From a virus: 42,025 nucleotides of DNA. Shown here one piece after another: positions 140 to 37,847 of the stretch (within the stretch, counting starts at the first letter, position 1; every line of letters starts with the position of its first letter). The position numbers and the translations under genes were made by a program. The notes below the pieces were generated by a model. It worked only from the letters and a program-made list of their open reading frames with translations, was not told the DNA's origin and ran no database searches. The DNA lies in IMG/VR virus record IMGVR_UViG_3300017527_000137, positions 1 to 42,025 of that record, one strand, 5' to 3'.

Positions 140-1201
140 ATGCACCCAGTCACCTCATATGCCAGGGCAGTGGTCCAGGGCAAGGTGCCAGCATGTCGAT
201 GGGCCATGCTGGCCTGTGAGAGGCTTCTCCTGGACCTGGCCCTCCAGAAAAAAAAGCCCTTCCCCTACAGGTTTGATGAGGAGCTGGCTGACAGGGCTGT
301 GGAATTCTACAGCTACCTCAAGCACTCAAAAGGCAAGTGGGCTGGGCAGGAATTCATCCTGGAGCCCTGGCAGATCTTCATAGTCGGCAACATTTTTGGC
401 TGGGTGAAAAAAGCAGATGGCCTCAGGAGGTTTCAGACAGTCTACATTGAGGTGCCCAGGAAAAACGGGAAAAGCACCCTGGCCTCAGGCATTGGCCTTT
501 ATTGTTTTATCGCGGATGGGGAGCCTGGGGCTGAGGTCTACACTGCAGCCACCAAGCGGGACCAGGCCAGGATCACTCATGGGGAGGCAGTCAGGATGGT
601 CCGAAAGTCTCCTTTCCTCAGATCCAGGATCAAGATCTACAAAGACAACATGCATATCATTGCCACTGCTGCAGTGTTTGAGCCCCTGGGGGCAGATGCT
701 GACAGCATGGATGGGCTCAATGTTTTGTGTGCTATTATTGATGAGCTACATGCCCACAAAAAGAGAGATACTTTCGATGTCTTGGAGACTGCCACTGGGG
801 CCAGGCAGCAGCCCATCTTATTTAGCATCACCACTGCTGGCTTTGATAGGCAGAGTGTCTGTTTTGAGCAGCATGACTACCTCACCCGAATCCTCAAGGG
901 GGCAGCAGACAGATCCTTTGTGGATGACACATATTTTGGGGTGATCTACGGCATTGATGATGATGATGACTACAGAGACCCCCATGCCTGGGCAAAAGCA
1001 AACCCAAACCTGGGGGTGAGTGTCAACCTGGAGGATCTGGAGAGGAAGGTGAGAAAAGCCTCAGCCTCTCCAGCCTCTTTGAATAATCTGCTCAGAAAGC
1101 ACTTTGATAAGTGGGTGCAGCAGAGTGTCAGGTGGATAGATATGGACCTGTGGAGGTCCAATGCTGACCCTGAGAAACCAGTCTATGAGGAGGTGGCATG
1201 A
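140..1201 (+). CDS. terL: terminase large subunit, ATPase half of a split gene
   Basis: 353 residues matching the N-terminal packaging ATPase of HK97-like large terminases (Terminase_1 type), which pumps DNA into proheads. Visible motifs: EPWQ adenine-contact motif (75-78), Walker A PRKNGKS (106-112), Walker B CAIIDE (197-202) and the coupling motif FSITTAG (228-234). The protein stops after a typical linker (RWIDMDLW...), where family members of roughly 500-580 residues continue into an RNase H-like nuclease. That nuclease is a separate gene at 2155-2832. The ATG at 140 directly follows the upstream stop. The end overlaps the next gene by ATGA. The ATPase call is firm; that the two halves act together is inference. 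Confidence 0.93.
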   Translation: MHPVTSYARAVVQGKVPACRWAMLACERLLLDLALQKKKPFPYRFDEELADRAVEFYSYLKHSKGKWAGQEFILEPWQIFIVGNIFGWVKKADGLRRFQTVYIEVPRKNGKSTLASGIGLYCFIADGEPGAEVYTAATKRDQARITHGEAVRMVRKSPFLRSRIKIYKDNMHIIATAAVFEPLGADADSMDGLNVLCAIIDELHAHKKRDTFDVLETATGARQQPILFSITTAGFDRQSVCFEQHDYLTRILKGAADRSFVDDTYFGVIYGIDDDDDYRDPHAWAKANPNLGVSVNLEDLERKVRKASASPASLNNLLRKHFDKWVQQSVRWIDMDLWRSNADPEKPVYEEVA

Positions 1202-1386
1202 AAACAGAGAGTTTCGATATGAGGTGCCTGCACTGTGGAGAGTATAATTCCACCATAAAGAAGCATTGGCCCAGCACTTCCCAGGAGATGCCAGACCCAG
1301 ACCTATACAGAATTGACTGCCCTGATTGTGGCAACTCTGAATTGATAAGAATCCCCACCTACCCTAATGGAGGATTAAAAGCATGA
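1198..1386 (+). CDS. small zinc-ribbon protein inside the terminase split
   Basis: 62 residues with two CxxC pairs (CLHCGE near residue 10 and CPDCGN near residue 41), the pattern of a zinc ribbon. It starts at an ATG overlapping the ATPase stop (ATGA), with GAGGAGG just upstream, and its end overlaps the methyltransferase start in the same way, so translation is coupled. No specific family recognised. It could be a nucleic-acid-binding or protein-contact module. Its position between terminase halves suggests, without proof, a link to packaging or to the adjacent methyltransferase. Confidence 0.75.
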   Translation: MKTESFDMRCLHCGEYNSTIKKHWPSTSQEMPDPDLYRIDCPDCGNSELIRIPTYPNGGLKA

Positions 1387-2015
1387 ACCACAGAGAGTAT
1401 GTAGGACCACTGAAAAACTGGGACAAGGTGGCAGCAGGGGCTTTCTGCCTGCTGGCCGGGCTGGGCCTCAGAGGGCACCACAAGCTGCTGGACATAGGCT
1501 GTGGCTCCATGAGGATAGGCAGGCTGCTCATCCCCTACCTGGACAAGGGGTGCTATTATGGGGTGGAGCCTGAGAAGAAAATGCTGGAGGCAGGGGTCAA
1601 GCATGAGCTGGGCATGGAGCTGAAAAGGGCAAGGGGGGCTCATTTCAACAGCTCTGCCAGAGCCTTTGCCACAGTCCACTCCAAGCTCAAGCTGGACTTT
1701 GCCCTGGCCAATTCCATCTTCACCCATGCAGGCCCTGACATCATTGCAGAGTGGCTCCAGGTTTGCAGCCACCACCTCAAGGCCAATGCCCTGCTGGTGG
1801 CCAGCTTTAGGCAGGGCAGGAGAGACCTGGGTACAAAGCCATGGTCCTACCCAGGGACCATCACATACCGCTTTGAGACCATGGCTGAGATGGCCAGGGA
1901 GCATGGCCTCCACTGCCTCATGCTGCCCATAAAGCACCCAGAGCCCACCCAGGCCTGGATAATTTTTATCAACCCCCTGTTTGACAGGAGAAGGCTGGAG
2001 AGGGTGGGGCTATGA
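1383..2015 (+). CDS. class I SAM-dependent methyltransferase
   Basis: 210 residues. Motif I for S-adenosylmethionine binding is clear (LLDIGCGSMRIGRL, about residues 36-49), followed by YYGVEPEKKML, where an acidic residue ends strand 2, and LDFALANSIFTH as the motif IV region. There is no DNA target-recognition domain and no DPPY or PC motif, so a small-molecule, glycan or protein substrate is more likely than DNA bases. It is translationally coupled (ATGA) to the zinc-ribbon gene before it and the membrane peptide after it. It sits between the two halves of the large terminase, an unusual place for such a gene. Substrate unknown. Confidence 0.85.
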   Translation: MNHREYVGPLKNWDKVAAGAFCLLAGLGLRGHHKLLDIGCGSMRIGRLLIPYLDKGCYYGVEPEKKMLEAGVKHELGMELKRARGAHFNSSARAFATVHSKLKLDFALANSIFTHAGPDIIAEWLQVCSHHLKANALLVASFRQGRRDLGTKPWSYPGTITYRFETMAEMAREHGLHCLMLPIKHPEPTQAWIIFINPLFDRRRLERVGL

Positions 2016-2155
2016 GAAAGCAGATGCATCTCATCTCAATCATAATGGGGCTGGGGGCTATGGTGGGCCTGGTTATCCATGCAGGTCTGGTGACCACTGC
2101 TCTCATCCTCTTGCTGATGTGGGGCAATAACATGGAGCAGGAGTACAGGGCCTGA
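2012..2155 (+). CDS. 47-residue membrane peptide in the terminase split
   Basis: The ATG at 2012 overlaps the methyltransferase stop (ATGA). The stop at 2153-2155 overlaps the nuclease start (TGATG). The peptide is basic at the N-terminus (MRKQ), then about 32 almost uninterrupted hydrophobic residues, enough for one long or two short membrane helices, and ends in a short acidic tail (EQEY). The tight overlaps on both sides support translation. No family recognised. Confidence 0.6.
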   Translation: MRKQMHLISIIMGLGAMVGLVIHAGLVTTALILLLMWGNNMEQEYRA

Positions 2156-2832
2156 TGTCTGTTGACTGGGAGGCCACAAAGAAAAAATACATCCACAGGG
2201 TCTGCTTTGGAGGGATTGACCTGTCTGCTGTGAAGGATCTCACAGTGTGGGTGCTGATCTTCCCTGATGCAGATGACTGGGAGCAGCTGGATATTCTCTG
2301 CCAGAGCTGGGTGCCTGAGGCCCAGCTGGTCAATCCAAAAAACAGATACAGGGACCAGTATGCTGGATGGGTCAGGGAGGGCTGGCTGACTGCCACCAGC
2401 GGCAATGCCATTGACTATGACCTGGTGAGAGCTGCTGTCAAAGCTGATGCCCAGATCTTCGACATTCAGTCTGTGGCCATAGACAGGCTTTTCCAGGGCT
2501 ATGAGTTTGAGCAAAAACTCAACACAGACCTGGGGGGCCATGAGAAAAGGCCCAGGGTTTTTCCCTGTGGGATGGGCTTTTTGTCCATGGCCCCCCTCAC
2601 TAAAGAGTTTGAGACCAGGCTGCTAAAGAAAAAATTAAACCATGGCCACAACCCTGTGCTGACTTTTTGCGCGGATAATGTGGCTGTGAGAATGGATACT
2701 GCAGGCAACCTGAAACCAGACAAGACTGAAAGCCAGGGCAAGATAGATGCCATTGTGGGCATCCTCCTGGCCCTTGACAGAGTGCTGAGGCAAAAGAAAC
2801 CTGAACCCCCACCCCTGCCATCTTTTATGTGA
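2155..2832 (+). CDS. terL: terminase large subunit, nuclease half of a split gene
   Basis: 225 residues equal to the C-terminal RNase H-like nuclease of HK97-type large terminases, which cuts concatemeric DNA at packaging. Expected acidic residues are visible: D22 in FGGIDLS, D110 in SVAIDRL and D198 in GKIDAIVG. The family stretch GMGFLSMAPLTKEFE is also present. It begins where the ATPase gene's linker would have continued, and has its own ATG in a TGATG overlap with the membrane peptide gene, so it is translated separately. The product is probably functional because all key residues remain. Confidence 0.92.
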   Translation: MSVDWEATKKKYIHRVCFGGIDLSAVKDLTVWVLIFPDADDWEQLDILCQSWVPEAQLVNPKNRYRDQYAGWVREGWLTATSGNAIDYDLVRAAVKADAQIFDIQSVAIDRLFQGYEFEQKLNTDLGGHEKRPRVFPCGMGFLSMAPLTKEFETRLLKKKLNHGHNPVLTFCADNVAVRMDTAGNLKPDKTESQGKIDAIVGILLALDRVLRQKKPEPPPLPSFM

Positions 2833-31632: not shown

Positions 31633-32466
31633 ATGGGCAAGCACATGCTGACAGGCATCAAGGGATGTGTGGGAGAAAGCAGGATCTTTCGGGTGGACCC
31701 CAGGATGATCAGGGTGGTTGCTGGGAGAAACCCCAGGAGCTATTTCGATGATGGGGGCATGGAGGATCTCAAGAAGTCCATCATAAAAAACGGGGTCAAG
31801 GTGCCCATCGTTATCAAGAAAAACAAGGACGGTCACCTTGAGCTGATCGACGGTGAGAGAAGGACCAGGGCCTGCATGGCTGCAATCAAGGAGGGGGCCG
31901 ACATCAAAAGTGTGCCTGCCATGGTGGAGAGGCCCACCATCACTGATGCTGAGATGCTGAGGGCCAGCCTGGTCTGCAATGATGGGATGCCCCTCTCTCC
32001 AGTGGATGAGGGCAGGGCATACAAGCGGCTGATGGACTGGGGCCATGGCCAGGCAGAGATAGGTGACATGGTGGGCCGGTCCAATGTCCACATTATCAAC
32101 AGGCTCAAGCTGGTGGACACTGCCCCTGTGGTGGAGGATGCAGTCAACAAAGGTCAGATCCCCATCTCCAAGGCAGTGGACATCGTGGACAAGTCCAATG
32201 GGGATACAGCAGAGCAGCAAAAACAGCTGGACCTGGCCCCCAAAAAAGGCAAGAGAGCCAAGAGGGTGCTGATCAAGTGGGCCGAAAAAAAGAATGAATA
32301 CCGTATCCAGTATGAGGAGAGGGAGGACAAAAAAGAGCAGCTCCTGGCCCTGGTGAATAATCCCAAAGGCCCCTGGAGAAAATTTGAGAAGCAGCTGTCC
32401 GACCTGGGCTATGACTATGGCAGCATCAAGCTCAGGGTGGAGCCCTACAAGGTGCAGGATGACTAG
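31633..32466 (+). CDS. ParB-like partition/CTPase-fold protein
   Basis: 277 residues with the ParB N-terminal domain: NPRSYFDDGGMEDLKKSIIKNGVKVPIVI and the CTP-binding GERRTRA (74-80). A helix-turn-helix follows (GQAEIGDMVGRSNVHIINRLKL, about 139-160), then a basic C-terminal part. ParB proteins clamp onto DNA beside parS sites. No ParA gene is visible in the window, so the role could be partition with a host ParA, gene control, or DNA organisation in infection. It has a strong AAAGGAGGCGAT site. Confidence 0.88.
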   Translation: MGKHMLTGIKGCVGESRIFRVDPRMIRVVAGRNPRSYFDDGGMEDLKKSIIKNGVKVPIVIKKNKDGHLELIDGERRTRACMAAIKEGADIKSVPAMVERPTITDAEMLRASLVCNDGMPLSPVDEGRAYKRLMDWGHGQAEIGDMVGRSNVHIINRLKLVDTAPVVEDAVNKGQIPISKAVDIVDKSNGDTAEQQKQLDLAPKKGKRAKRVLIKWAEKKNEYRIQYEEREDKKEQLLALVNNPKGPWRKFEKQLSDLGYDYGSIKLRVEPYKVQDD

Positions 32467-36311: not shown

Positions 36312-36465
36312 AGACTGTCAGAGACTCACGGGGGCTGGCCCTGGAATCAAGCAAGGCAAGCAATATTGCCACTGTTGTGGCAAGGAGAAGGATGACACTG
36401 CAGCATATGGCAGTGACAGCTGGGATGCTATTGCTGATGAATACCTCAAGCATATCACAGCTTGA
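36289..36465 (+). CDS. small CxxC zinc-finger protein
   Basis: 58 residues. CRDC (7-10) and CHCC (about 27-30) form a four-cysteine site (YIVCRDCQRL...QYCHCCGKEK), followed by an acidic helix (DSWDAIADEYLKHITA). The ATG at 36289 lies inside the previous gene's end with a purine-rich GAGCAGAGAGAG leader. Its stop lies in the left arm of the long two-tier hairpin. Confidence 0.65.
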   Translation: MTKYIVCRDCQRLTGAGPGIKQGKQYCHCCGKEKDDTAAYGSDSWDAIADEYLKHITA

Positions 36466-36515
36466 TTTTTAATTCTGAGGGCCAGCTTATGTTGGCCCTC
36501 ATGGTGAAAAATCAA
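36462..36515 (+). promoter_or_regulatory. two-tier hairpin upstream of the HNH/IS110-like gene
   Basis: Outer arms TTGATTTTT (36462-36470) and AAAAATCAA (36507-36515), and inner arms TGAGGGCCA (36476-36484) and TGGCCCTCA (36493-36501), both perfect 9-bp pairs, enclose 5x5 internal loops and an 8-base apical loop. The ribosome binding site AAAGGAGGTGG begins at the foot of the outer stem. In RNA it could limit access to that site or mark the left edge of a mobile module. Confidence 0.65.
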
Positions 36516-36527
36516 AGGAGGTGGTGA

Positions 36528-37472
36528 ATGGCTAAAGAGGCACTGAAAGAGAAAATGGTGGAGAGGCAAAATGGAGTTGACCCTCTGAGTGGAGAGCCCC
36601 TGGGGGCAGCTCTATCACTTGTGGACACGCACAGGAAAAGGCCCAGGTGTGATGGTGGGGGCTATTCGGATGACAACTACATTGTGACAAACCCTGTGCC
36701 ACACCTGCAGGAGCATGGGGCCTGGGTGGATAGAGACCCTGCCCTGGCTGGTCTCAAGGCTGTGTTTGACTCCAGGCAGGTGATCATCAAGAGAAAGGTG
36801 GCAATGGACAACCAGCTCCTGGCTTTCAAAAGGGGCACTGATGTGATCACCCCAGAGGAAGTGGAGGCCCTGGCAGCAGGATCAACGGCCCTGGCAGCTA
36901 TCAAGGCCAGGAAAGACAAGGAGCTGAGGGGTTTGGTCAAGGCAATGGACAACCCCCATGCCAAGGCCATCATAAGTGTGCCAGCCACAGGGGAGATCAC
37001 TGCTGCAGCCTGCCTGGTCTACCTGGACCCCTACAAGGCAAAGTACCCATCCTCATATGTCAAATATGCAGGCCTGCACTGTGCTGCAAAAGACAGATAC
37101 AGAAAAAATGAGGCTGGTGGGGGCAATAAGAGCCTGAGGTGCATTTTGTGGAATTTTGCCAATTCACAAATCAAGCTGGGAGGCCCCTACAGGGTAGACT
37201 ATGACAGGCAAAAGCTCAGGAGGGCAAACAGCAATAAAATGACCATGACCAACATCACGGGCAAAACAGGAGCCCATGAGAGAAGATGGTCAGAGGTCTC
37301 TGCTGGCCATAGGCATGGGGATGCCCTCAGAAAGGTCATGAAACTGTTTCTGTGCCACCTGTGGCTGGTGCAGAGGGATATTGAGGGCCTGCCCCTGGTG
37401 ACCCCATACCCATTGGACAGGCTGGGGCATAGCACCATCATCTCACCAGAGGACAGGGGGTGGATCTACTGA
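36528..37472 (+). CDS. HNH-like nuclease fused to an IS110-type (Transposase_20-like) domain
   Basis: 314 residues. The N-terminus (VERQNGVDPLSGEPL, LVDTHRKRPRCDGGGYSDDNYIVTNPVPHLQEHG) has the Asp-His...Asn...His order of an HNH/beta-beta-alpha-metal nuclease (D33, H35, N50, H59/H63). A helical region follows. Residues about 145-235 resemble the C-terminal domain of IS110-family transposases (IISVPATGEITAAACLVYLDP, YVKYAGLH, GGGNKSLRCILWNFA). The IS110 N-terminal RuvC-like DEDD domain is absent. The gene is flanked by the two-tier hairpin and, from its stop codon, by the 36-bp periodic array. Perfect AAAGGAGGTGG site. Confidence 0.7.
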   Translation: MAKEALKEKMVERQNGVDPLSGEPLGAALSLVDTHRKRPRCDGGGYSDDNYIVTNPVPHLQEHGAWVDRDPALAGLKAVFDSRQVIIKRKVAMDNQLLAFKRGTDVITPEEVEALAAGSTALAAIKARKDKELRGLVKAMDNPHAKAIISVPATGEITAAACLVYLDPYKAKYPSSYVKYAGLHCAAKDRYRKNEAGGGNKSLRCILWNFANSQIKLGGPYRVDYDRQKLRRANSNKMTMTNITGKTGAHERRWSEVSAGHRHGDALRKVMKLFLCHLWLVQRDIEGLPLVTPYPLDRLGHSTIISPEDRGWIY

Positions 37473-37483
37473 TCAAAACCATT

Positions 37484-37835
37484 AAGAAACCCATGGTTGT
37501 AAAATGAACCAGGCTGACAAAGAAAACCAAGCTGAGAAAATGAGCCATGAGAGATAAGAAGCCCATGGAAATTTAATGAATCACCTGAATGAAGAAACCC
37601 AACCAGTGCAAATGAGCCATATGGATCAAGAAACCCAAATTAGCTGAATGAACCATAAAATATAAGAAGCCCATGGAAAATGAATGAATCATGCAAGGCA
37701 AGCAACCCACTGCCAGTAAATGAACCATTACCTATAAGAAACCCACAGAGGACAAATGAACCATAGCTGCCAAGAAACCCAGAGAAGCTAAATGAACCAC
37801 CAGCACCAAGAAGCCCATCTTGATAGAATGAATTG
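37484..37835 (+). repeat. 36-bp periodic array of alternating 10-bp motifs with 8-bp variable spacers
   Basis: Motif B (AAGAAACCCA) and motif A (AAATGAACCA) alternate, each pair separated by exactly 8 variable bases. B copies start at 37484 and every 36 bases after it (10 copies, last at 37808). A copies start at 37502 and every 36 bases (9 good copies, last at 37790, plus a decayed one at 37826). Motif changes are mostly A/G or C/T at fixed positions; spacers look unrelated. A and B are not complementary, so no hairpins form. The array begins 11 bases after the HNH/IS110-like stop and fills the gap to the next gene. Confidence 0.9.
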
Positions 37836-37847
37836 AGGGCCAATAAC

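What the first reader, a model, noticed from the sequence alone, without database searches (positions are those of the whole stretch)
36528..37472. HNH domain in place of the RuvC-like domain of an IS110-type protein
IS110 transposases combine an N-terminal DEDD domain with a C-terminal helix-hairpin-helix/serine domain and use a structured RNA from flanking non-coding DNA. Here the C-terminal part looks related, but the front looks like an HNH nuclease, and structured or repeated non-coding DNA lies on both sides. It could be a domesticated or new kind of phage nuclease using neighbouring RNA or repeats.
Basis: partly seen in the sequence, partly recalled or inferred. Interest (0 to 1): 0.75.

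Follow-up and report, generated by a model that had tools for sequence, protein, structure and literature searches.

The report
Phage RNA-guided DNA cutter with guide array
A phage gene next to a row of short repeats is a new example of a recently described RNA-guided DNA-cutting system (TIGR-Tas, nuclease TasH); what its guides are aimed at is still unknown.

Summary
The 314-aa protein at 36528-37472 is TasH: a small HNH-type module (residues about 1-66) fused to the Nop/IS110-like RNA-binding body. It matches solved TasH by sequence (E 2e-58) and fold (Z 27.7). The repeated DNA downstream is a TIGR dual-repeat array: 36-nt units of 10-nt loop repeat, 8-nt spacer, 10-nt edge repeat, 8-nt spacer, ten predicted guides. 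Its first, truncated edge repeat contains the tasH stop codon. The closest characterised relative is TasH of Salicola phage CGphi29 (40% identity), for which Faure et al. 2025 report tigRNA-guided cleavage. All 45 viral loci with related Tas genes carry a 36-nt array. Departures: no terminator found after the array, a strong hairpin just before tasH, and His for Asp in the HNH motif, shared by two relatives. Target hunting gave no own-genome target and no excess over shuffled guides. The best lead, from a TasA relative rather than the window, is an exact match to an invariant helicase motif in other phages; it cannot be separated from chance.

The parts
36528..37472 (+). tasH, 314 aa: HNH-type module plus Nop/IS110-like body; predicted tigRNA-guided DNA endonuclease
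36624..36716 (+). HNH-type beta-beta-alpha motif, codons 33-63 (D33, H35, R36, N50, H59, H63)
   Evidence: alignment of TasH proteins; predicted secondary structure
36735..37469 (+). Nop/IS110-like RNA-binding body, residues 70-314 (coiled coil about 71-139 and C-terminal domain)
   Evidence: structural alignment to TasH, TasR and IS621; NCBIfam NF052498 residues 78-282
37466..37833 (+). TIGR dual-repeat array: edge repeat AAATGARYCA and loop repeat AAGAARCCCA alternate with 8-nt spacers, 36-nt units, 10 predicted tigRNAs; first edge (37466-37475) and last edge (37826-37833) truncated
37470..37472 (+). tasH stop codon TGA, inside the truncated first edge repeat CTACTGATCA
36462..36515 (+). long imperfect hairpin directly before the tasH ribosome-binding site; role unknown
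   Evidence: window z -5.7 and -7.1; a strong fold also before tasH in L009, none in six other loci
36514..36521 (+). Shine-Dalgarno-like AAAGGAGG before tasH
   Evidence: sequence

Best explanation
The locus is a TIGR-TasH system of a tailed phage. [quoted passage not shown] A TasH dimer holds one tigRNA through its Nop body and opens DNA where spacer A pairs with one strand and spacer B with the other; each HNH module nicks one strand, giving a double-strand break (guided cutting shown for CGphi29 TasH and the dimer for TasR by others, inferred here). The likely use is to damage the DNA of rival mobile elements or of the host during infection; no target was identified here.
For: Sequence: phmmer to solved TasH, E 2.2e-58 over residues 12-313; tblastn to Salicola phage CGphi29, 39.8% over 99%; NCBIfam TIGR_Tas_endo E 5e-28. 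Fold: best nine Foldseek PDB rows are TasH, E 6e-26 for the top one; VIA-align Z 27.7, rmsd 2.6 over 242 residues, ahead of TasR 18.8 and IS621 16.7. HNH residues conserved, with His35 shared with L008 and L011. Array in the position and 36-nt period that Faure et al. describe, 8+8-nt spacers as they report for the CGphi29 system (paper sections 4-6). The same arrangement was read directly in CGphi29 and Microcystis phage Mvi-JY20. A 36-nt array lies near the gene in 45 of 45 IMG/VR Tas loci, lag 36 ranking first in 44.
Against: NCBIfam score 98.5, cut-off 100; Pfam Transposase_20 below cut-off and no Pfam HNH match; no PADLOC match. No rho-independent terminator was found on the + strand after the array up to 38200, whereas Faure et al. 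describe one as typical and both CGphi29 and Mvi-JY20 show one. No RNA data. Ten guides without an identified target (guide 4).
Confidence: 0.95

Rival explanations
1. A genuine TasH fold whose nuclease is inactive, so that it binds or bends DNA without cutting, like TasA. The window has His at the position that is Asp in the tested CGphi29 TasH.
For: DTHR instead of DVDR; residues 41-43 have pLDDT under 50.
Against: The same His is present in L008 and L011, so 3 of 9 distinct TasH carry it; R36, N50, H59 and H63 are kept in all. That pattern does not look like decay.
Confidence: 0.15
2. A domesticated or diverged IS110 transposase that lost its DEDD domain, using a bridge-type RNA.
For: Weak Transposase_20 and transpos_IS110 matches; IS621 fold match, Z 16.7 over 182 residues.
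Against: TasH matches far better (Z 27.7, 242 residues). NCBIfam IS110 gives 17.9 bits against a cut-off of 140. The best IS621 alignment begins at model residue 69 and IS621 residue 124, so it leaves out the DEDD part. The array is of the dual-repeat TIGR type.
Confidence: 0.02
3. The 36-nt repeats are ordinary iterons or a leftover repeat array unrelated to the protein.
For: No RNA data; no terminator found after the array.
Against: Related genes have repeats of the same period but different sequence beside them (45 of 45 IMG/VR loci; dual repeats), so repeat and protein travel together. Of 22 capsid-chosen loci, lag 36 ranked first in one.
Confidence: 0.02

Closest known systems
TIGR-TasH of Salicola phage CGphi29 (HQ634153, SLPG_00018)
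   Same: HNH plus Nop architecture, 39.8% identity over 99%; array directly downstream, 36-nt units with 10-nt repeats and 8-nt spacers, repeats ending in CCA or a variant.
   Different: Different repeat sequences; DTHR instead of DVDR; no terminator found after the array, where CGphi29 has a clear one; strong hairpin before the gene.
TIGR-TasR (PDB 9mty)
   Same: Nop body, Z 18.8 over 195 residues; dual-repeat array principle.
   Different: RuvC instead of HNH; 9-nt spacers (paper, section 6).
TIGR-TasA, e.g. Microcystis phage Mvi-JY20 and most of L015-L050
   Same: Nop body and dual-repeat 36-nt array.
   Different: No nuclease domain in the cases read in full (L004 and L005).
IS110/IS621 recombinase
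   Same: C-terminal body, Z 16.7 over 182 residues.
   Different: DEDD domain and bridge RNA, not HNH and an array.

Membership tests
TIGR-Tas (TasH subtype) | Nop domain body of the Tas family | tested here: met
   (NCBIfam score 1.5 bits under its cut-off)
TIGR-Tas (TasH subtype) | N-terminal HNH nuclease module with conserved site | tested here: met
   Pfam HNH models do not detect it
TIGR-Tas (TasH subtype) | Array of two alternating 8-12-nt repeats separated by short spacers, 36-nt unit, next to the gene | tested here: met
TIGR-Tas (TasH subtype) | Array begins and ends with truncated edge repeats | tested here: met
   37466-37475 and 37826-37833 by reading; edge/loop assignment is by analogy with CGphi29 and Mvi-JY20
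TIGR-Tas (TasH subtype) | Predicted rho-independent terminator after the array (described as typical, not required) | tested here: not met
   none on the + strand from the array to 38200; no unusually stable fold there (z 0.09)
TIGR-Tas (TasH subtype) | Box C/box D motifs shared by edge and loop repeats | tested here: inconclusive
   loop repeats end in CCA and the complete edge repeats in CCA or TCA; box D not clearly the same in both (AAG and ATG)
TIGR-Tas (TasH subtype) | Processing into 36-nt tigRNAs and dual-spacer guided cleavage | not testable with these tools
   needs expression and in vitro assay
IS110 transposase | N-terminal DEDD/RuvC-like domain | tested here: not met
   N-terminus aligns with the TasH HNH module; IS621 aligns only from model residue 61-69 on
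IS110 transposase | Element ends and bridge RNA in flanking DNA | not tested
   -

The most novel reading that the evidence does not exclude
TIGR arrays in phages are lists of guides against invariant sites in the replication genes of competing phages, with variant guides following codon variants of the same motif. In a TasA array family (L030-L041) the recurrent guide TAGAGGTCA/AGCGAACTA, written as spacer A plus the reverse complement of spacer B with no gap, is an exact 18-nt match to the KGLRGHSSL motif of an AAA_25 helicase/primase in two phage contigs, and 4 of its 5 variants still encode RGHSS. TasH in this window would be the cutting version of the same weapon.
Probability: 0.15. Interest if true: 0.85.

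Novelty: new member of a known kind. Interest (0 to 1): 0.35.

Why it matters
TIGR-Tas was described in 2025 and few TasH examples came up here: this one, CGphi29 and the nine IMG/VR loci fetched (two of them near-identical). A further TasH at about 40% identity with its complete array is useful for mapping HNH site variation, repeat and spacer rules, and guide repertoires. Faure et al. state that the natural targets and the way guides are acquired are unknown; the set of arrays gathered here, and the helicase lead, make the target question testable.

Tried and rejected
Own-genome targets: the ten window guides as spacer A + 0-2 nt + reverse complement of spacer B gave 0 matches with up to 2 mismatches in the window and 20 with 3; shuffled pairs averaged 1.4 and 19.65. 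Two other geometries did no better than their controls in that call.

Guides of 29 arrays (30 parsed, L049 left out) against 785 kb of fetched loci: 8-nt form, 27 and 34 one-mismatch hits against 27 and 35 (plus 3 exact) in rotated-pair controls; 9-nt form, 41 two-mismatch plus 3 one-mismatch against 57 plus 1, and 44 against 57 plus 1. No excess.

Spacer A/spacer B covariation: none in TasH or TasA arrays.

Viral collection scan with window guide 4: 48 stretches, scattered over unrelated genes. The largest cluster was 11 contigs with one gene at gap 1; I recall its DECLNEHWF stretch as IS3-type transposase, not tested. This number also calibrates chance: about one hit per exact 18-mer. The other nine window guides were not scanned against the collection.

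Helicase lead: pattern scan 3 stretches, two of them homologous contigs. The gene is AAA_25 and the motif is KGLRGHSSL in 77 of 77 sites found by a pattern that already required most of it. Against it: other guides of the same arrays gave no excess in 1.04 Mb of that phage family. Guide variants are not more synonymous than random over 64 related guide pairs (P 0.36). Scans with two other recurrent guide families gave 22 stretches, 6 of them one T4-type sliding-clamp site (gp45-slide_C), and 5 stretches in one gene: numbers chance could give. RGH-coding guides over all 398: 5, shuffled mean 4.2. Guides shared between array families: 34 cross-family pairs at 13/18 or more against 19-32 in shuffles; the best pairs join arrays with the same or similar repeats.

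Genome collection: first scan with the TasH alignment found none; second with the mixed Tas alignment found 12 MAG loci.

Rfam and tRNA scans of the window: nothing.

Full report
WHAT IS THERE. The window is the whole of one IMG/VR virus record of 42,025 bases with terminase, portal, capsid and replication-type genes of a tailed phage. ORF 36528-37472 (+) encodes 314 aa. Directly after it lies an array with a 36-nt period: lag-36 identity 0.61 over 300 nt against 0.38 for the best place elsewhere in the window and 0.40 for the highest of 200 whole-window shuffles. Before it lies a long hairpin at 36462-36515 (-33.8 kcal/mol for 36455-36527, z -5.7).

WHAT IT IS. The protein matches the solved TasH sequence over residues 12-313, E 2.2e-58. 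NCBIfam TIGR_Tas_endo matches residues 78-282 at 98.5 bits, cut-off 100. Transposase_20 matches 146-216 below its cut-off and no HNH Pfam model matches. An AlphaFold2 model from nine TasH proteins (mean pLDDT 84) finds the TasH-tigRNA complexes as its best nine Foldseek rows, Z 27.7 with rmsd 2.6 over 242 residues (9vzx) and Z 27.4 with rmsd 5.5 over 300 residues (9w04), then TasR (18.8) and IS621 (16.7).

HNH MODULE. Among nine distinct TasH proteins with a readable N-terminus (window, CGphi29, L006, L008-L012, L014; L007 is nearly the same as L006, and L013 was left out because the start I chose lies inside the gene) D33, R36, N50, H59 and H63 are always kept. Position 35 is Asp in six and His in three, the window among them. 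The model shows strand 33-36, strand 51-54 and helix 56-62, the beta-beta-alpha order of HNH nucleases, with low confidence around residues 41-43. I infer an active site but cannot show activity.

ARRAY. Loop repeat AAGAARCCCA and edge repeat AAATGARYCA alternate with 8-nt spacers, giving ten predicted tigRNAs. The loop/edge assignment follows CGphi29 and Mvi-JY20, where the edge repeat runs into the terminator. The first edge repeat is truncated and contains the tasH stop codon; the last is truncated at 37826-37833. The base before the edge motif varies (A, G or T), so spacer B may be 9 nt. No terminator follows on the + strand. Guides 3 and 6 have near-identical B spacers (7 of 8).

RELATIVES. 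An IMG/VR scan gave 45 Tas loci, nine of TasH type (L006-L014). All 45 have lag-36 periodicity near the gene, the strongest lag in 44, the weakest case 0.45 (L031) against a shuffle maximum of 0.39. Of 22 capsid-chosen control loci, lag 36 ranked first in one (L056, 0.44); two others showed 0.52 and 0.62 at lag 36 with equal or higher values at lag 42, which I take for repetitive genes. Automatic parsing misplaced the array in L015, which the repeat chain then recovered; L049 chained only three repeats although one search had 26 units. Of 12 loci from bacterial and archaeal MAGs, about 10 show lag 36-37 or twice that, one of them (L242) weakly, with no shuffle control. Of 22 contigs chosen for a related capsid, one (G020) has a Tas-like match; its 468-aa ORF gave no Pfam match and is followed by GC-rich repeats of about 69-72 nt.

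HOW IT LIKELY WORKS. From Faure et al. 2025 (PMC12045711; [quoted passage not shown] From their text I derived that a target reads spacer A followed by the reverse complement of spacer B. For this locus all of this is inference by homology.

TARGETS. No own-genome target and no excess in 785 kb of fetched loci. One TasA array family (L030, L032-L035, L037-L039, L041) carries a recurrent guide with variants. Its composite TAGAGGTCATAGTTCGCT is exact in two homologous phage contigs inside an AAA_25 helicase/primase gene, coding LRGHSSL, a motif found unchanged at 77 of 77 sites located in 80 homologous loci by a pattern that already fixed most of it. Four of five guide variants code RGHSS. However, about one exact chance hit is expected per 18-mer in this collection (scaled), other guides of these arrays show no excess in that phage family, and guide variants in general are not enriched for synonymous change. 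I keep it as a lead at 0.15.

VERDICT. Searches of the open-access library for TIGR-Tas and tigRNA returned Faure et al., one review on the subject (PMC12385481, passages read) and papers that mention it (listings only); none of the listings reports natural targets, but most subscription papers are not held.

Noticed in passing
window 140-2832: The large terminase gene is split inside its nuclease domain: ORF 140-1201 covers TerL_nuclease model positions 4-81 and ORF 2155-2832 positions 94-283. The gap of about 950 bp holds a methyltransferase ORF (1383-2015, Methyltransf_12; weak PADLOC mad2 match). Rfam finds no intron there.
   Followed up: partly
L058/L232 (G020): A phage contig whose capsid is 44% identical to the window's encodes a 468-aa protein with a weak Tas match, followed and overlapped by GC-rich palindromic repeats of about 69-72 nt; this could be the stem-loop type of TIGR array.
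   Followed up: partly
L030, L032-L035, L037-L039, L041: Related TasA arrays share many guide units in the same order, with losses, duplications and point changes in both spacers: material for studying how TIGR arrays evolve.
   Followed up: partly
L006/L007, L008, L010, L012: In these TasH loci, repeat units also lie directly upstream of tasH, so arrays lie before the gene and, at least in L007, L008 and L012, also after it.
   Followed up: no
window 37834-37843 and 36462-36515: The 10 nt after the last truncated edge repeat (TGAGGGCCAA) are the exact complement of part of the 3' arm of the hairpin before tasH. GAGGGCCA occurs 13 times in the window against 5.2 expected.
   Followed up: no
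window 31633-32466: A ParB-like gene lies about 4 kb upstream of tasH. Faure et al. mention parB-like genes beside some TasA loci, but here it is not adjacent.
   Followed up: no
L210, L221, L222, L224, L226, L229: A degenerate pattern from a second recurrent TasA guide family hits one site of a T4-type sliding clamp in six contigs; the number is within what chance could give.
   Followed up: partly
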